From positions 9,089,001-9,153,000 of the forward strand of contig NZ_JAMZEC010000001.1 of NCBI RefSeq assembly GCF_024172185.1: 64,000 nt of DNA, read 5' to 3'. How positions within the stretch are numbered: the first letter of the stretch is position 1; the number at the start of each line of letters is the position of its first letter. Positions 9,491 through 51,452 of the stretch are shown here, piece after piece. This stretch comes from Nonomuraea roseoviolacea subsp. carminata (lineage in GTDB: Bacteria > Actinomycetota > Actinomycetes > Streptosporangiales > Streptosporangiaceae). Made by a program: the position numbers and the translations under genes. The notes beneath the pieces are model-generated. The model made no database searches and was not told where the DNA came from. It was given only the letters and a program-made list of their open reading frames with translations.

Positions 9491-10249
9491 GTGAGCGTGC
9501 GCTCGTCTTCGCTGATCACGCTCACGCCGCTGCTCCCGGCCGCCCTGGTGCTCCTCGTCGCGGTGGGCGCGGTCGTGGCCTGGCTCGGGCGGCTCGGTCA
9601 CGGGCGGGCCGTGGTCACGGCGAGCCTGCGCGCCGCCGTGCAGCTGGGCGCCGTGTCCGCGGTGATCGCCTGGGTGATCGCCTCCTCCGCCGCCGTGGCG
9701 GGCTTCATCCTGCTCATGTACGGCGTCGCCGCCTTCACCGCGGGCCGGCGCGTCACGCGCGGCCGTAGGGGGTGGTGGGCGGCCGTGCCCATCGCGGCGG
9801 GCGTCGCGCCGGTGCTGGGCGTCCTGGCGGCCGGCGGGGTGATCTCGGCGAAGGGCGTGGTGGTGATCCCGGTCGCCGGGATCCTGCTCGGCGGCTGCCT
9901 GACCGCCACCACGCTGGCCGGGCGGCGCGCCCTCGACGAGCTGGCCCAGCGCAAGGGGGAGGTGGAGGCGGCCCTGTCGCTGGGGTTCACCCCGAGGGAG
10001 GCGGCGCTGGAGATCTGCCGTCCGGCGGCCTCGCAGGCGCTGGTGCCGGCGCTCGACCAGACGCGGACCGTGGGGCTGGTCACGCTCCCGGGCGCGTTCG
10101 TGGGCATGCTGCTCGGCGGGGCGAGCCCCGTACAGGCCGGGATCGTGCAGCTCGTGGTGCTGGTGGCGCTGCTGGCCGCCGAAGCCGTGGCGACGCTGGT
10201 GACGATCGAGGTGGCCGCCCGCGGCCGCTTCGGCGCCACCCCGCAGTGA
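9491..10249 (+). CDS. FetB/UPF0014-type ABC exporter permease
   Basis: The 252-residue membrane protein has six to seven hydrophobic segments, beginning PLLPAALVLLVAVGAVVAWLG. The conserved block SLGFTPREAALEICRPAASQ and the following ALVPALDQTRTVGLVTLPGAFVGMLLGGASP are hallmarks of the FetB (YbbM) family. In E. coli FetB works with the ATPase FetA in iron export under oxidative stress. Here no ATPase gene is next to it, which is odd; a genomic partner elsewhere would be needed. The start is GTG 9491. Its stop codon lies in the first unit of a tandem repeat, and a strong terminator follows. Confidence 0.85.
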   Translation: MSVRSSSLITLTPLLPAALVLLVAVGAVVAWLGRLGHGRAVVTASLRAAVQLGAVSAVIAWVIASSAAVAGFILLMYGVAAFTAGRRVTRGRRGWWAAVPIAAGVAPVLGVLAAGGVISAKGVVVIPVAGILLGGCLTATTLAGRRALDELAQRKGEVEAALSLGFTPREAALEICRPAASQALVPALDQTRTVGLVTLPGAFVGMLLGGASPVQAGIVQLVVLVALLAAEAVATLVTIEVAARGRFGATPQ

Positions 10250-10340
10250 CACGGCCACCCCACTGTGAGACGGCCACTCCCACTGTGAGACGGCCATCCC
10301 ACAGCGAGACGGCTGCCCCGCAGTGAGACGGCCGCCCTCC
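10242..10340. repeat. Five tandem 20-bp units starting at the permease stop codon
   Basis: Units of about 20 bases begin at 10242 inside the last codons of the permease gene (first unit 19 bases). The core is CACTGTGAGACGGCCACTCC. Four of the five units keep an in-unit TGA. The array runs into the first arm of the terminator at 10335. Confidence 0.85.
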
Positions 10341-41782: not shown

Positions 41783-41856
41783 GGTTCAGCCGGCCGGGAA
41801 GTGCGCGCGGTCGGCCAACCGCGAAGTTGGCGCGGTCAGCCGACCGGGAAGTTGGC
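41783..41856. repeat. Three 24-25-bp repeats at the stop of the FAD-linked oxidase gene
   Basis: Units at 41783-41806, 41807-41831 and 41832-41856 follow GCGGTCAGCCGACCGGGAAG. The last unit covers the coding end and TCA stop (41836-41838) of the minus-strand gene. The outermost unit keeps a TCA, and the middle one has TCG. Confidence 0.8.
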
Positions 41857-43128
41857 GCGGAAGACGTTCCGCGGGTCGTGTGCGCGCTTGACGGTCCGCA
41901 GCCGGGCCAGCGCCTCCGGTGTGAAGGCGTCGGCCGCGCTCTCGCCGGGGTTGAGGAAGGTGTACGGCTTGCGGCCGCTGACCGGCAGGGCGCCGGCGAT
42001 GTCGCGCTGCCGGGCCGTGACGGCCTCGGCCGTGGCCGGGTCGGCGGGGATCCCGAACAGGTACAGCACGTAGGGCTCCGCCAGAGCGCCGGGCGGGCTG
42101 TCGGACGGGCGGGCCAGCGCGCCCCCCAGGTGCCGGATCTGCACGCTCAGCAGCGGCGCGATGGGGTCGGCCAGCAACGCCTTGGCCGCCGCGTCGTCCA
42201 GCTCGGTCAGCAGCTCGGCCCGCGACAGGCCCGCGCCGGGGTCGGTGGGCTCGGCGGTGATGGAGCCCAGCTCCGCGGGCGACATGACGCCGCGGCTGTC
42301 GGACAGCGGCGCGGCCAGGCCGTCCAGCGGGGCCAGCAGGTCGCGTGCCTCGTCCGGGTCGCCGAGGTACGTCGCGTCGACGGCGACCATGGGGGCGGCG
42401 CCGGGGAAGTGGAGCAGGTCCAGCCAGACGGTCAGCTCGTCCGGGGCCGTGGCGGTGATGCGCCGGTAGGCGTCCATGACGGCGGGGGCGTGCTCGGCGG
42501 TCCACAGGACGCGCCCGCCGTACAGGCGCGGCGCGGGGCGCAGGGCCAGCTCCAGCGCGGTGACGACCGCGAAGTCGCCGCCCCCGCCGCGCAGCGCCCA
42601 GAACAGGTCGGGGTCGGCGTCCGCGGTGACGCGCCGCGGCCGTCCGTCGGCGTCGACGACGTCGAACGCGGTGACGCTGTCGGCGACCCACCCGTACGCG
42701 CGGCCGAACCAGCTCAGCCCGCCGCCGAGGGCGACGCCCGTGACACTGACGACCGGCGAGCTGCCGGGCAGCCCGGTCAGGCCGTGCGGCGCGGCGGCGG
42801 CCTGCAGCCGGCCCGAGGCCACGCCCGCGCCGACGCGGGCGCGGCGGGCCACGGGGTCGATGTCGAGGGTGTCCAGCAGCCGGGTGCGCAGCAGGATCGC
42901 GCCGTCGGTACGGCCGCTCGCGCCGTGCCCGTTCGGCTGGGTCGCGATGCCCAGTCCCGCCGGGCCGGCGTACCGGACGAGGGCGGCGACGTCGTCGGCG
43001 TCGGCGGCCTCGACCACGGCGGCCACGGGCTGCTCGACGGCCAGGTTCCAGGGGCGGCTGGCGGCGTCGAACCCGGGGTCGCCGGGCAGCAGGACCTGGC
43101 CGCGCACGGCCGATCGCAAGGTTTCCAT
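41836..43128 (-). CDS. FAD-linked oxidase (BBE / PCMH type)
   Basis: The 430-residue protein has the FAD_binding_4 domain: VAAVVEAADADDVAALVRYA, then TQPNGHGASGRTDGAILLRT, where the His may link FAD covalently. GVTGVALGGG-like VSVTGVALGGGLSWFGRAYG and DLFWALRGGGGDFAVVTALEL are hallmark motifs. The C-terminal BBE motif appears as FLNPGESAADAF and KRAHDPRNVFRANFPV. It would oxidise an alcohol, sugar or natural product. ATG 43128 follows GAGGA. It is 22 bases downstream of the SnoaL-like gene and likely in one operon, under the divergent LysR gene. Confidence 0.9.
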   Translation of the reverse strand: METLRSAVRGQVLLPGDPGFDAASRPWNLAVEQPVAAVVEAADADDVAALVRYAGPAGLGIATQPNGHGASGRTDGAILLRTRLLDTLDIDPVARRARVGAGVASGRLQAAAAPHGLTGLPGSSPVVSVTGVALGGGLSWFGRAYGWVADSVTAFDVVDADGRPRRVTADADPDLFWALRGGGGDFAVVTALELALRPAPRLYGGRVLWTAEHAPAVMDAYRRITATAPDELTVWLDLLHFPGAAPMVAVDATYLGDPDEARDLLAPLDGLAAPLSDSRGVMSPAELGSITAEPTDPGAGLSRAELLTELDDAAAKALLADPIAPLLSVQIRHLGGALARPSDSPPGALAEPYVLYLFGIPADPATAEAVTARQRDIAGALPVSGRKPYTFLNPGESAADAFTPEALARLRTVKRAHDPRNVFRANFPVG

Positions 43129-43780: not shown

Positions 43781-44677
43781 ATGCTGGAGCGGCACGAGCT
43801 GGAGGCGTTCCTCACGCTGGCCGAGGAGCTGCACTTCGGCCGGACCGCCGAGCGGCTGCGGGTGTCCACCGCCCGTGTCAGCCAGACCGTCGCCAAGCTG
43901 GAGCGCCGCGTCGGGGTTCCGCTGTTCAACCGCACCAGCCGCCGGGTGGAGCTGACGTCGGTGGGACGCGATCTGTACGAGGAGACCCGTCCGGCCTGGG
44001 ACCGGATCGCCGCCGCGTACGAGCGGGCCGTCGCCGCCGGGCGCGGCCTCACCGGCACCCTGCGCGTGGCGTTCGTCGGCGCCGCGGGCGGCCAGCTGCT
44101 GGCCGGGGTGGCGGAGCTGTTCCGGCGGCGCCGGCCGGACTGCGACGTCCGGTTCCGGGAGGCGCACATGGTCGACCTGATGCCCTGGCTGCGGGCCGGC
44201 GAGATCGACCTCGCGCTGGGCACCTTCCCCATCGACGAGCCGGACATCGAGACCGGGCCGGTCCTCGTGTCCGAGGCGCGCATGCTCGCGGTCCCGGCCG
44301 GGCATCCCTTCGCCCGCCGGACCTCGCTCTCGCTGGAGGATCTGGCCCGGGTCAGGCTGCTCCAGCTTCCGGACACGCTCCCCGCGGCCCTGCGCGCGGA
44401 CCGCACCCCGAGCGTCACCCCTTCGGGGCGGCCGATCGAGCCCGGCCCGTCGGCCTCCACCTTCAACGAGCTGCTCACCCTGGTCGGGGCCGGTCACGGC
44501 GTCTTCCCGGTCGGCGCGCACGCCCGGCGCTACTACGTCCGGCCCGACGTCGCGTACGTCCTGATCGACGACGCCCCGCCGCTGCGGTGGGGGCTGATGT
44601 GGCGGACGGAGGGCGCCACCGCGCGTGTGCGCGCCTTCGGCGAGGCCGCCCGCGACCTGCTCGCCGACGACGCCTGA
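43781..44677 (+). CDS. LysR-family transcriptional regulator
   Basis: The 298-residue protein has the LysR HTH at 1-60: ELEAFLTLAEELHFGRTAERL, then VSQTVAKLERRVGVPLFNR. The effector domain runs from about residue 90 (GTLRVAFVGAAGGQLLAGVAELF) and shows the usual two-lobed pattern. ATG 43781 follows GGGGGAC. It is divergent from the SnoaL/FAD-oxidase operon, with a near-perfect palindrome in the spacer. Its 3' end (RDLLADDA) is copied twice after its own stop codon. Confidence 0.93.
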   Translation: MLERHELEAFLTLAEELHFGRTAERLRVSTARVSQTVAKLERRVGVPLFNRTSRRVELTSVGRDLYEETRPAWDRIAAAYERAVAAGRGLTGTLRVAFVGAAGGQLLAGVAELFRRRRPDCDVRFREAHMVDLMPWLRAGEIDLALGTFPIDEPDIETGPVLVSEARMLAVPAGHPFARRTSLSLEDLARVRLLQLPDTLPAALRADRTPSVTPSGRPIEPGPSASTFNELLTLVGAGHGVFPVGAHARRYYVRPDVAYVLIDDAPPLRWGLMWRTEGATARVRAFGEAARDLLADDA

Positions 44678-44742
44678 GAGCGCGTGACCTGCTGACCGAC
44701 AACGCCCGAAAGCCCGTGACCTGCTGGCCGACGACGCTCCGG
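44651..44742. repeat. Three 30-32-bp repeats covering the lysR 3' end and stop
   Basis: Unit 1 (44651-44680) codes the last residues and stop of the LysR protein. Units 2 (44681-44712) and 3 (44713-44742) repeat CGTGACCTGCTGGCCGACGA-type sequence downstream. The extra units bring in-frame or shifted TGA codons. Confidence 0.82.
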
Positions 44743-46340: not shown

Positions 46341-47462
46341 ATGGCGGCACTGCGGACGGCACGGCGGATCCTCATGGGCGGGGCGGCCCTCGCCGCGGCG
46401 GGATGGGCGCTGCGTGACGTGCCCGCTGAGTTCGGTGTGCGGCCCCTGCGGTCGGGGCCCGTGCGGGAGGAGCGGATCCGGCGCTCACCGCAGTTCAGGG
46501 ACGGCGCGTTCGTCAACACCATGCCGGAGGCGACCACGCTGGTCAGCGCCCCGCCCGCGGGCATGCTGGGCGAGCTGGCCAAGGACCGCGACCAGCGACG
46601 CCCGGCCGGGCCCGTGCCGCTGCGCGTGCCCCCGGCGGGCGCGGCCCCGCCCGAGGGCGTGCGCGCCATCTGGTACGGCCACGCCTCCACGCTGGTGGAG
46701 ATCGAGGGGCGGCGGGTGCTGTTCGACCCGGTGTGGAGCCGGCGCCCCTCCCCCTCGCAGCTCGTCGGGCCGAAGCGGCACCACCCGGTGCCGGTGCCGC
46801 TGGCGAGCCTGCCGCTGGTCGACGCCATCGCGATCTCGCACGACCACTACGACCACCTCGACCTGGCGACGGTGCGCGGGCTGACGGCCACGCAGCGGGC
46901 GCCGTTCCTGGTGCCGCTGGGCATCGGGGCGCACCTGGAGCGCTGGGGCGTGCCCGCGTACCGGATCATCGAGCTCGACTGGGAGGAGGAGGCCGAGGTC
47001 GGCGGGCTGCGCTTCGTCGCGACGGCCGCCCGTCACTTCTCCGGGCGCACGCTCACCCGCAACGACACGCTGTGGGGCTCGTGGGTGGTGGCCGGGCCCA
47101 CCCGCAAGGTGTTCTACGCGGGCGACTCCGGCTACTTCGAGGGCTACCGCGGCATCGGCGCGGAGCACGGGCCGTTCGACCTGACGCTCATGCCGATCGG
47201 CGCCTACAGCCCGGCGTGGCCGGACATCCACATGAACCCGGAGGAGGCGGTCAACGCCCACCTCGACCTGGGCGGCCGGGTGCTGCTGCCGGTGCACTGG
47301 GCGACGTTCACGCTGGCGCTGCACCCGTGGGCGGAGCCGGTGGAGCGGCTGTGGCGCGAGGCCAAGGCCCGCGAGGTGTCGATCGTGGTGCCCCGGCCCG
47401 GCGAGGCCGTGGACCCCGACGCGGTCCCGGCCGTGGACGGCTGGTGGGAGACCCTGACCTGA
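46341..47462 (+). CDS. MBL-fold metallo-hydrolase (NAPE-PLD/UlaG-like)
   Basis: The 373-residue protein has a short N-terminal hydrophobic segment (ILMGGAALAAAGWAL) that may anchor it in the membrane. Metal motifs are ISHDHYDHLDLATV, AARHFSGR, FYAGDSGYFEG and LPVHWATF, as in NAPE-hydrolysing phospholipase D-like enzymes. WYGHASTLVEIEGRRVLFDPVW is the characteristic first strand. The substrate is likely a lipid or phosphodiester, not established for bacterial members. ATG 46341 follows GGGGAGAG. Its stop starts a long array of 32-33-bp repeats. TATCGCGATA (46253-46262) upstream could be an operator. Confidence 0.9.
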   Translation: MAALRTARRILMGGAALAAAGWALRDVPAEFGVRPLRSGPVREERIRRSPQFRDGAFVNTMPEATTLVSAPPAGMLGELAKDRDQRRPAGPVPLRVPPAGAAPPEGVRAIWYGHASTLVEIEGRRVLFDPVWSRRPSPSQLVGPKRHHPVPVPLASLPLVDAIAISHDHYDHLDLATVRGLTATQRAPFLVPLGIGAHLERWGVPAYRIIELDWEEEAEVGGLRFVATAARHFSGRTLTRNDTLWGSWVVAGPTRKVFYAGDSGYFEGYRGIGAEHGPFDLTLMPIGAYSPAWPDIHMNPEEAVNAHLDLGGRVLLPVHWATFTLALHPWAEPVERLWREAKAREVSIVVPRPGEAVDPDAVPAVDGWWETLT

Positions 47463-47710
47463 GCCGGATACGCCGGCGGAGCCCCCAGCCTCAGCGGGAC
47501 ACGTCCGGCGGAACCCCCGGCCTGAGCGAGAGGACAGCCTGCCGAGCTCCCGGCGTGAGCGGGGGGACGGCTTCCCCCGCCTCCGGCGCGAGCGGGGGGC
47601 GGCCTGCCCCGACCCCGGCCTGACCAGGGGGCACGGGCGGCCGAGCCCCAGCCCGGGCCGGGGGACGGCGGGCGGAGGTCCCGGCCTGAGCCGGGGCCGC
47701 GGGAGCCGTA
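47458..47710. repeat. About eight 32-33-bp degenerate repeats starting at the metallo-hydrolase stop
   Basis: Units start near 47458, 47489, 47521, 47554, 47587, 47619, 47652 and 47685. Each begins CCTGAGC or a close variant, and the first CCTGAG is the stop codon of the upstream gene. Later bases follow GGGGGACGGC and GAGCCCCCGG patterns. The array fills the gap to the pirin gene, and no gene lies in it. Confidence 0.85.
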
Positions 47711-47720
47711 CAGTCGCAGC

Positions 47721-48635
47721 ATGAGCAACCTGGAGCGGGACCCCGGCGAGATGCGGTGCGGCGCGGCGGACGGCGGCGGCGCCGAGTCGCTCGCCGGGCG
47801 GGAGGTGCCGCTGGGCGGGCCGCGCGCGATGCGCGTGAGCAGGACGCTGCCCGGCGTGCGCCGCCGCATGATCGGCGCGTGGTGCTTCGTCGACGCCTAC
47901 GGGCCCGAGGTGGCCACGATGCGGGTGCCGCCGCACCCGCACACCGGCCTGCAGACCGTGAGCTGGCTGCTGTCGGGCGAGGTGCTGCACCGCGACAGCC
48001 TGGGCAGTCTCCAGGTGGTACGGCCGGGGCAGCTCAACCTCATGACGGCCGGGCGCGGCATCTCCCACTCGGAGGAGTCGCGCGAGGAGCTGCTGCACGG
48101 GGTGCAGCTCTGGGTGGCGCTGCCGGACGGCGCCCGGGGCATGGAGCCGGGCTTCGAGCACCACGCGGACCTGCCGCGGGTGTCCGGGCCGGGCTTCACC
48201 GCGACGGTGATCATGGGGTCGTTCGCCGGCGCCGCGTCGCCGGCGACGGCCCTCACGCCGCTGGCGGGGGCCGAGGTCGCCGTCTCGGGGGCGGCCGAGC
48301 TGCCGCTCGACCCCGCGTTCGAGCACGGGCTGCTGCTGCTCGACGGCGAGGTCGAGCCGCTCGAGCGGGGGCCGCTGCTGTACCTGCCGCCGGGCCGTAC
48401 GGGCTTGTCCCTGAACGGGGACGGGCGGGTGCTGGTGATCGGCGGCGAGCCGTTCGCCGAGGAGATCGTGATGTGGTGGAACTTCGTGGGCCGCGACCAC
48501 GACGAGATCGTCGCGTTCCGCAAGGAGTGGATGGAGGGCGACGGGTTCGGCGCGGTCGAGGGGTTCGACGGCGCCCCGTTGCCCGCGCCCGTCCTGCCCG
48601 GCACGCGGCTGCGGCCCCGGGGCCGCAGCCGCTGA
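47721..48635 (+). CDS. Pirin-family protein
   Basis: The 304-residue protein has two cupin domains. The metal-binding N-terminal one shows VPPHPHTGLQTVSWLLSGEV, HRDSLGSLQVVRPGQLNLM and AGRGISHSEES, where His, His, His and Glu bind Fe. The C-terminal cupin ends with VMWWNFVGRDHDEIVAFRKEW. Bacterial pirins are proposed quercetinases or regulators of pyruvate metabolism. ATG 47721 stands six bases after TACAGT, so it is probably leaderless. The last 24 coding bases form the first unit of the 41-bp repeat. Confidence 0.92.
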   Translation: MSNLERDPGEMRCGAADGGGAESLAGREVPLGGPRAMRVSRTLPGVRRRMIGAWCFVDAYGPEVATMRVPPHPHTGLQTVSWLLSGEVLHRDSLGSLQVVRPGQLNLMTAGRGISHSEESREELLHGVQLWVALPDGARGMEPGFEHHADLPRVSGPGFTATVIMGSFAGAASPATALTPLAGAEVAVSGAAELPLDPAFEHGLLLLDGEVEPLERGPLLYLPPGRTGLSLNGDGRVLVIGGEPFAEEIVMWWNFVGRDHDEIVAFRKEWMEGDGFGAVEGFDGAPLPAPVLPGTRLRPRGRSR

Positions 48636-48734
48636 CGTCACCGGCGGGGGCGCGGCCCCGGGGTCACAGCCGCTGAGGTCACCGGCGGGGGTGCGGCCCC
48701 GGAGCCGCAGCCGCTGAGGTCACCGGCGGGGGTG
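48612..48734. repeat. Three 41-bp units spanning the convergent pirin and kinase stop codons
   Basis: Units at 48612-48652, 48653-48693 and 48694-48734 differ at a few bases. Each contains CGCTGAGGTCACCGG or CGCTGACGTCACCGG, so each has a TGA on both strands. Unit 1 codes the pirin C-terminus and stop, and unit 3 codes the kinase C-terminus and stop. Confidence 0.93.
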
Positions 48735-51452
48735 CGAGAAGACGACGTCCATGTTCTCGCCGCCGGTCGGCACCGTGAGCAGCGTCCGCACCGAGGTCCC
48801 CCTGAAGTCGATCACGTGGATCTCGTAGCGGCCGCCGCCGGGGTTCGTCCAGCAGACCAGGTGCAGGTCGTCGTACCAGGTGGCCAGGCCCGAGCACGGC
48901 GACTCGAAGCGGGTCAGCTCCGCGCCGGAGGCGGTGTCGTAGACGCAGTTGTCGCCGCTGACGAGGCCGGGACAGTTCGTGACGAACTTCTGCCCCGTGG
49001 GCGAGAACAGCGAGTCGGCGATCGCCGCGCCGACGTTCGGCACCCGGCGCACCCGCGTGCCGTCGGCGGCGAAGAAGCGCAGCGCCTGCTGCTTGGCGAC
49101 GTTGGAGAGGGCGACCACGCCGGTGTCCCGCTCGTCGAAGCCGTACCGGATGCCGCGCAGCGCGCCCTCCCGGAGCGTGGCGATGCTGGCCTGCCGGGTG
49201 GCGACGTCCACGATGGCGAACCCGGTGGACTGCCACTCCGTGCCGCTGGCGTTGCCGACGTTGAGGAGGAGGCGGTTGCCGTCGCGGGACCAGGTCTGGA
49301 CGTACGCGCTGAGCGGCTGGCGGGAGGTGAGGATGGAGAACTTCTCGCCGGTGACCTTGTCGGTGATGTCCACCGTGTCGTAGCCGCCGACGAACTGTTT
49401 GCCGCGGCTGGCGAGGTAGCGGCCGTCCGGGGAGAGGACAGCCTCCCACGCTTCCGGATATTTCATGAAATTTCCGGTCAGAGAGTCGCGTGCGTAGTAC
49501 ACCCAGTTCTGCGTCTTGGGGTCGCGCAGCATGTACGTGGTCAGCCGCACCCTGTCGGCGGGCGACTCGGTCAGGGTGGCGGTCGTCCCGGGCAGCGTGA
49601 CCTGGCCCAGGCCGGTGGTGGGCACCGGCGGGACGCTCGGGCTCGCGGTGGCCGTCGCGGTCTGGGCCAGGGTGGGTGTGGGGCCGGGCTCGTCGCGCAT
49701 CCTGACGACGGCGACGGCGACGACCGCGATGGTCGCCACGACCGCCACGGCGGCGGCCACACCCGCCACGATCATCCCCCTGCGCGGCCGTTGGGGGCGC
49801 GGCGCGTAGGGGGGCGCGCTCGCGGCGAGGGGCGCGTGGGGGTAAGGACCGTGTGGGCCGCCGGGACTTCCGTGGCCGGGCGGGCCCGGGGGCGTGTTGT
49901 GGGGGGAGCTCTGCGGGCCGCGCGGGCCTGAGCCGTGCGGGGGGCCGTAGGAGGCGTGGGTCCCGCTCGCCCCGGCCGACGGGACGCCATGCGCGGCACC
50001 GGGACCGGACGGCGGGGTGTAGGGACTCTGCGGCGCCCGGCCCTGGGACGGCGGCGGAGCATAGGGAGACCCCTGCGGCCCCTGCGACCTCGGGGCCGGA
50101 GGCACCTGCGGGCCCGAGTGCGGGGACCCCTGAGGACCAGGACGAGAGGATCCCGGCGGACCCGGGTGCGCCACCTGCGGGCCCGAGTGCGGGGCGGCTT
50201 GGGGGCCCACGGGCGGCGTCTGCGGGCCCGAGTGCGGGGATACCTGAGGGCCCGGGGGCGTTGGGGATGACTGCGGGGTCGGGCGCCCCTGCTGGCCAGG
50301 CGCCGAGGATGCCTGCGGACTCGGGGGCCCCTGAGGGCTGGGCGGCGAGGACGGCTGCGAGGTCGGGCGCCCCTGCTGGCCAGCCGCCGAGGATGCCTGC
50401 GGGCTGGGGTGCGGGTGTGGGCTGGGCTGCGAGGACGGCTGTGAGGTCGGGCGCCCCTGCGGGGCAGGCGGCGAGGATGCCTGCGGGCTCGGGTTAGGGT
50501 GCGCTGGGGATGGCGGCGGGCTCGGAAGCGGGGACGTCTGCGGGGCCGGGAGTGGGGACGCCGATGGGGTCGGGAGTGGGGGCGCCGGTGGGGCGGCGTT
50601 CACCACGGCGGCCGCCTGCTTCAGCTCCGGCGGTTCGGCGGATGACGGGTTCTGCAGCAACCTCATGATCACCTGCTCGGCCGTCGGCCGTCGTGCCGGG
50701 TCCTTGGCCAGGCAGGCCGCCACCAGCTCGCGTAACGGCTCCGCGAGCGGCGTCAGGTCGGGCTCCGTGTACAGGACGCGCTGGATGATCGTGGGCACGG
50801 ACGAGGCGGCGAAGGGCCCGGTGCCGCTGGCGGCGAACAAGATGATGCTGCCCCACGCGAACATGTCCGCCGCCGGCCCCACGGGCTGGGCGAGGATCTG
50901 CTCGGGCGCCATGAACGCGGGCGTGCCCACCGGCATGGACGTGATCGTAGAAGTGGCGTCGAGCGCCCGCGCGATGCCGAAGTCGATGACGCGTGGCCCC
51001 TCGGCGCCGAGCAGCACGTTGCCGGGGCTGAGGTCGCGGTGGACGATGCCGGCCTGGTGGATGGCGGCCAGCGCCGTCACGGTGCCGATGGCCAGCCGGT
51101 GCAGCGCCGCGTCCGAGCGCGGCCCCTCCTGCGCCACCGCCTCCTGGAGGGACGGCCCGTCGACGTACTCGCTCACGATGTACGGACGCTCGTCGTGGAC
51201 GCCGGTGGCGAGCAGCTTGGCCGTGCAGAACGGCGCCACGCGCCGCGCCGCCGCGGCCTCCCTCGCGAACCGCTCCGCCGCGACCGCGTCCCCCGCCAGG
51301 TGGGGCCGCAGCCACTTCACGGCCACCCGGCCGCCTTCCCCGTCCTCACCGAGGTAGACGACCCCCTGGCCGCCTTCTCCGAGCCGCCCCTTGATCTCGT
51401 AGCCTCCGAGAGCGGGGGGATCGCCCGGGCTGAGCTTGCTGATAGACGGCAT
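48720..51452 (-). CDS. Receptor-type Ser/Thr protein kinase with extracellular propeller-like domain
   Basis: The 910-residue protein has an N-terminal kinase domain (about 15-275): glycine loop GRLGEGGQGVVYLG, AVKWLRPH for the ATP Lys, catalytic HRDLSPGNVLL, and VIDFGIARALD. About 270 residues of Pro/Ser/Gln-rich linker follow, with repeats of APQGRPTSQPSSQPSP kind. One membrane span (MIVAGVAAAVAVVATIAVVAVAV) lies near residue 560. The outer 300 residues have WD/TolB-like beta strands (VLSPDGRYLASRG, TWSRDGNRLLLN, LFSPTGQKF), so a propeller rather than PASTA repeats forms the sensor. CATAAT six bases before ATG 51452 suggests a leaderless mRNA. A TGACCA-TGGTCA palindrome overlaps the start. 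Confidence 0.9.
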   Translation of the reverse strand: MPSISKLSPGDPPALGGYEIKGRLGEGGQGVVYLGEDGEGGRVAVKWLRPHLAGDAVAAERFAREAAAARRVAPFCTAKLLATGVHDERPYIVSEYVDGPSLQEAVAQEGPRSDAALHRLAIGTVTALAAIHQAGIVHRDLSPGNVLLGAEGPRVIDFGIARALDATSTITSMPVGTPAFMAPEQILAQPVGPAADMFAWGSIILFAASGTGPFAASSVPTIIQRVLYTEPDLTPLAEPLRELVAACLAKDPARRPTAEQVIMRLLQNPSSAEPPELKQAAAVVNAAPPAPPLPTPSASPLPAPQTSPLPSPPPSPAHPNPSPQASSPPAPQGRPTSQPSSQPSPHPHPSPQASSAAGQQGRPTSQPSSPPSPQGPPSPQASSAPGQQGRPTPQSSPTPPGPQVSPHSGPQTPPVGPQAAPHSGPQVAHPGPPGSSRPGPQGSPHSGPQVPPAPRSQGPQGSPYAPPPSQGRAPQSPYTPPSGPGAAHGVPSAGASGTHASYGPPHGSGPRGPQSSPHNTPPGPPGHGSPGGPHGPYPHAPLAASAPPYAPRPQRPRRGMIVAGVAAAVAVVATIAVVAVAVVRMRDEPGPTPTLAQTATATASPSVPPVPTTGLGQVTLPGTTATLTESPADRVRLTTYMLRDPKTQNWVYYARDSLTGNFMKYPEAWEAVLSPDGRYLASRGKQFVGGYDTVDITDKVTGEKFSILTSRQPLSAYVQTWSRDGNRLLLNVGNASGTEWQSTGFAIVDVATRQASIATLREGALRGIRYGFDERDTGVVALSNVAKQQALRFFAADGTRVRRVPNVGAAIADSLFSPTGQKFVTNCPGLVSGDNCVYDTASGAELTRFESPCSGLATWYDDLHLVCWTNPGGGRYEIHVIDFRGTSVRTLLTVPTGGENMDVVFSHPRR

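What the first reader, a model, noticed from the sequence alone, without database searches (positions are those of the whole stretch)
48612..48734. A 41-bp repeat unit carrying stop codons for both strands
The unit contains CGCTGA(G/C)GTCACCGG, giving TGA on each strand. Unit 1 encodes the pirin C-terminus, unit 3 encodes the kinase C-terminus on the other strand, and unit 2 is a spare copy between. Insertion or loss of a unit would change neither protein. This looks like self-duplication of a convergent gene junction.
Basis: seen in the sequence. Interest (0 to 1): 0.7.

Follow-up and report, generated by a model that had tools for sequence, protein, structure and literature searches.

The report
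Tandemly repeated two-stop gene junction
Where two genes run head-on into each other in this soil actinomycete, the 41-letter stretch holding both of their stop signals is present three times in a row, which lengthens the gap without changing either protein; it is a neat but probably neutral example of how repeat arrays can grow at gene ends.

Summary
In detail: 3.1 copies of a 41-bp unit at 48610-48736. The pirin TGA (48633-48635) lies in unit 1, the kinase stop (48720-48722, minus strand) in unit 3, and unit 2 is spare.

The two nearest relatives found, Nonomuraea rhodomycinica and N. montanisoli, have one unit there that holds both stops 2 bp apart, with identical C-termini. Most simply, the window's lineage gained two tandem copies. 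The copies differ by 2-4 bases, which argues against an assembly error.

The unit is specific to this locus. The same two-stop layout recurs at two unrelated convergent junctions: a 14-bp unit in N. rhodomycinica and a 28-bp unit in a distant actinomycete. In surveyed regions, arrays cross stop codons about as often as random placement within gaps predicts, but avoid start codons (3 seen, 16 expected; 1 seen, 7 expected). Convergent gaps are richest in arrays. All mapped stop-spanning arrays differ in length between sister species.

Best reading: an ordinary minisatellite, probably made by slippage, tolerated because a duplication spanning both stops alters neither protein. A transcriptional role is possible but unsupported: the 28-bp palindrome has no U-tract, and such arrays are not generally enriched in hairpins.

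The parts
47721..48635 (+). pirin-family gene, 304 aa; last codons lie in unit 1
   Evidence: ORF; PF02678 4e-26 and PF05726 8.4e-10
48720..51452 (-). serine/threonine protein kinase gene, 910 aa; last codons and stop lie in unit 3
   Evidence: ORF; PF00069 8.5e-40
48610..48650 (.). unit 1 (41 bp), holds the pirin stop in use
48651..48691 (.). unit 2 (41 bp), spare; three private substitutions; both stop triplets present but unused
48692..48732 (.). unit 3 (41 bp), holds the kinase stop in use
48733..48736 (.). TGCG, start of a fourth copy; the 4-bp microhomology that flanks the single unit in the relatives
48633..48635 (+). pirin stop codon TGA
48720..48722 (-). kinase stop codon TGA (TCA on + strand)
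48605..48632 (.). perfect 28-bp palindrome GCGGCTGCGGCCCCGGGGCCGCAGCCGC within the last pirin codons; same sequence in both nearest relatives; no U-tract

Best explanation
It is a locus-specific minisatellite born by tandem duplication of a convergent gene junction. The ancestral site was a single 41-bp segment in which the two stop codons lay 2 bp apart. Two extra copies then arose in the window's lineage, by replication slippage or unequal exchange (inferred, not shown), possibly helped by the flanking TGCG and the 28-bp palindrome. Because the unit spans both stops, each ribosome still meets its own stop in the first copy it reaches, so neither protein changes. The event is invisible to selection on protein sequence and can spread by drift. 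Shown: the single-copy relatives, the exact 82-bp difference and the unchanged C-termini. Inferred: the direction of change, the copying mechanism and neutrality.
For: Single unit with both stops in N. rhodomycinica and N. montanisoli; exactly 82 bp difference; identical protein ends. In a sample of the family, matches to the region mostly end with the pirin gene and none shows the array. The copies carry private substitutions, most in the unused unit 2, while the coding part of unit 1 and the kinase-coding part of unit 3 match the relatives. The layout recurs in unrelated sequence in G035 (P450/SDR junction, 14 bp x3.1) and G105 (28 bp x5.5), with the plus-gene stop in the first unit and the minus-gene stop in the last each time. 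In G105 unit 1 has lost the unused TCA and unit 2 the unused TGA. Arrays avoid start codons (3 vs 16.0 and 1 vs 6.9 in codirectional gaps) but cross stops about as often as random placement within gaps gives; array density runs convergent > codirectional > divergent in all four sets. Stop-spanning arrays turn over fast: 0 of 19 and 0 of 24 have the same length in the sister species, against 54 of 85 and 39 of 69 for arrays inside genes.
Against: Microhomology is not a general rule: mean 1.9 vs 1.5 bp expected over 16 clean cases; the focal TGCG is marginal, reached by 3% of null sites. If the window's species branches outside its two relatives, a three-to-one contraction in them is possible. 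No reads or sister strains were available to show present-day copy-number change.
Confidence: 0.85

Rival explanations
1. The array is a functional 3'-end element: repeated GC-rich hairpins act as a bidirectional terminator or as a buffer against head-on transcription and antisense overlap, and extra copies were selected.
For: Unit 1 carries a perfect 28-bp palindrome with a 12-bp stem, also present in both relatives. Convergent gaps are richest in arrays. Triplication moves the two stops from 2 bp to 84 bp apart.
Against: No terminator with a T run and no Rfam match. Unit 2's copy of the palindrome has decayed by three substitutions. Stop-spanning arrays as a class have no clear excess of hairpins (4.1 vs 3.9 bp stem), and palindromes of 20 bp or more are not clearly concentrated near stops. 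The relatives manage with one unit.
Confidence: 0.1
2. The ancestor already had several units and the relatives lost them; the array is old and contracting.
For: Inter-copy divergence (mean 8%) is similar to the four-fold-site divergence between the species (6.5-8%), so the copies may be about as old as the species split.
Against: Both relatives are single-unit, and more distant Nonomuraea with the same convergent pair show no array.
Confidence: 0.1
3. The array is an assembly artefact.
For: Only one assembly holds it, and raw reads were not available.
Against: The copies differ at 2-4 positions, the array is only 127 bp, and the genome is in three contigs.
Confidence: 0.03

Closest known systems
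Bacterial minisatellites / VNTR loci in general
   Same: Head-to-tail copies of a 10-100 bp unit in an intergenic gap, differing in copy number between close relatives.
   Different: The unit contains the functional stop codons of both flanking convergent genes, with the first and last copies in use and the middle one spare.
Mycobacterium tuberculosis MIRU-VNTR, e.g. the rnc-fpg1 gap (PMC2734929)
   Same: A gap of a few bp in relatives is expanded to 279-358 bp by direct repeats in one clade.
   Different: That gap runs from a stop codon to a start codon and its array begins 40 bp after the stop. MIRUs are scattered in 41 places, whereas the unit here is at one locus. From my own knowledge, not tested: MIRU ends overlap stop and start codons.
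TAACTGA heptamer repeats of Beggiatoaceae (PMC4679880)
   Same: Repeats that carry stop codons; some sets overlap the stop of an upstream gene.
   Different: One heptamer in many places, mostly upstream of start codons with a proposed regulatory role; here the sequences are unrelated from locus to locus.

Membership tests
Intergenic minisatellite / VNTR | tandem head-to-tail copies of a unit above about 10 bp | tested here: met
   41 bp x 3.1, 90% matches
Intergenic minisatellite / VNTR | copy number varies between related genomes | tested here: met
   three units here, one in each of the two nearest relatives
Intergenic minisatellite / VNTR | copy number varies between isolates of one species | not testable with these tools
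   one genome per species held
MIRU-like interspersed repeat | related copies at many places in the genome | tested here: not met
   apart from the locus itself, only three weak matches of 35-61 bp at 78-86% in the genome
Intrinsic terminator | GC-rich stem followed by a run of T | tested here: not met
   palindrome present, no T run

The most novel reading that the evidence does not exclude
Two-stop minisatellites are a recurrent class at convergent junctions in actinomycetes, expanding unusually fast in this Nonomuraea clade, and copy number tunes 3'-end formation or insulation of the two head-on genes.
Probability: 0.1. Interest if true: 0.55.

Novelty: new member of a known kind. Interest (0 to 1): 0.35.

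Why it matters
It gives a clean before-and-after view of a convergent junction gaining units without touching either protein, and points to a simple rule that can be tested on whole genomes: stop codons are transparent to tandem duplication, start codons are barriers. Such loci could serve as typing markers for Nonomuraea, and the spare middle units offer a near-neutral yardstick next to constrained copies.

Tried and rejected
Interspersed repeat family: rejected. Known structured RNA: none. Intrinsic terminator with T run: none. General hairpin-driven duplication: no clear excess of stems in units. General microhomology-driven duplication: weak. An excess of arrays over stop codons under circular shift (39 vs 18) looked like a hotspot, but placement restricted to gaps shows mainly avoidance of starts and roughly expected crossing of stops, so I do not claim a hotspot. 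A further both-stop hit in G128 (8 bp, score 30, overlapping genes) was set aside as likely chance. Paper searches found no description of arrays whose unit holds both stops of convergent genes, but the library lacks most subscription journals.

Full report
OBSERVATION. The array is real and close to the stated coordinates: 48610-48736, period 41, 3.1 copies, 90% matches. The core occurs three times in the window against 0.01 expected. The pirin ORF (47721-48635, +) stops in unit 1 and the kinase ORF (48720-51452, -) stops in unit 3. The units differ from each other at two to four positions; unit 2, used by neither gene, has three private changes, units 1 and 3 one each.

COMPARISON. Among 55 genomes of the genus, 50 hold a strong pirin match. 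In the two nearest (98% and 97% identical proteins), the junction is a single unit with both stops 2 bp apart, followed directly by the kinase reading frame. Mapping the flanks onto G035 gives a difference of exactly 82 bp, two units. Pirin and kinase ends are identical in the three genomes. More distant Nonomuraea with the same convergent pair show no array; in L018 the kinase alignment ends next to the pirin stop. In a sample of the family, matches to the region mostly end with the pirin gene. The direct reading is a gain of two units in the window's lineage; a precise contraction in the relatives is the less likely alternative.

AGE. Copies differ by 8% on average, close to the 6.5-8% seen at four-fold sites between the species. 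With five substitutions in all, this says only that the event is not very recent.

GENERALITY. I called genes and tandem arrays in 1.16 Mb of the window's genome, 0.4 Mb of N. rhodomycinica and 0.2 Mb of each of six other actinomycetes. Two more arrays span both stops of a convergent pair: 14 bp x3.1 between a P450 and a short-chain dehydrogenase gene in N. rhodomycinica, and 28 bp x5.5 in G105, from a different class of the phylum, between a gene that looks like a membrane protein and an M23 peptidase gene. In each, the plus gene stops in the first unit and the minus gene in the last. In G105, unused stop triplets have been lost in units 1 and 2, as expected if only the stop in use is held by selection. 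The unit sequences are unrelated, so the layout arises repeatedly.

WHAT THE STATISTICS SHOW. Circular shifts suggested that arrays prefer stop codons (39 vs 18, 17 vs 7, 30 vs 10). A fairer null, placing each array at random over its own gap, shows that stops are crossed about as often as expected (somewhat more in codirectional gaps of two sets), while starts are avoided (3 vs 16.0; 2 vs 4.6; 1 vs 6.9 in codirectional gaps). Density is highest in convergent and lowest in divergent gaps in all four sets. Stop-spanning arrays differ in length between the sister species in every mapped case, arrays inside genes much less often. The gene caller is my own and its start positions are approximate, so the start figures carry that caution. 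Noncoding arrays are denser in the window's genome and N. rhodomycinica than in most other regions sampled, but the regions were few and not matched for position.

MECHANISM. Slippage or unequal exchange is inferred. The focal unit is flanked by TGCG in the single-copy relative, but microhomology is weak across cases. A 28-bp perfect palindrome sits in the last pirin codons and could stall a polymerase, but stems are not clearly enriched in such arrays. No terminator with a T run and no known RNA family is present. I therefore favour neutral growth tolerated by geometry: a duplicated block that contains both stops leaves both proteins as they were.

KNOWN KINDS. It works like, and is, an intergenic minisatellite. 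It is not a MIRU-like interspersed family. The M. tuberculosis rnc-fpg1 gap is a close parallel for expansion of a near-zero gap (PMC2734929), and the TAACTGA repeats of Beggiatoaceae for repeats that carry stops (PMC4679880).

Noticed in passing
window 10235-10337, 41786-41860, 44648-44737, 47458-47528: Other tandem arrays in the window that span one stop codon (stops at about 10249, 41836, 44677, 47462).
   Followed up: partly
window 47472-47696: About seven 33-bp GC-rich copies fill the gap upstream of the pirin gene, after a metallo-beta-lactamase-fold gene; the gap is about 163 bp shorter in N. rhodomycinica, which has a 32-bp x3.1 array at the stop of the upstream gene.
   Followed up: partly
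L093:18596-18638: 14-bp x3.1 two-stop array between P450 and SDR genes in G035; the window's genome has a diverged 14-bp array at the same site.
   Followed up: yes
L177:2126-2280: 28-bp x5.5 two-stop array in G105 next to an M23 peptidase gene.
   Followed up: partly
window 50265-50501: 84-bp/42-bp repeats in the kinase's proline-rich linker.
   Followed up: no
G000 (L038-L057, L098-L115) and G035 (L078-L097) regions surveyed: Noncoding tandem arrays are several times denser than in most other actinomycete regions sampled; a clade-specific mutational tendency is possible.
   Followed up: partly
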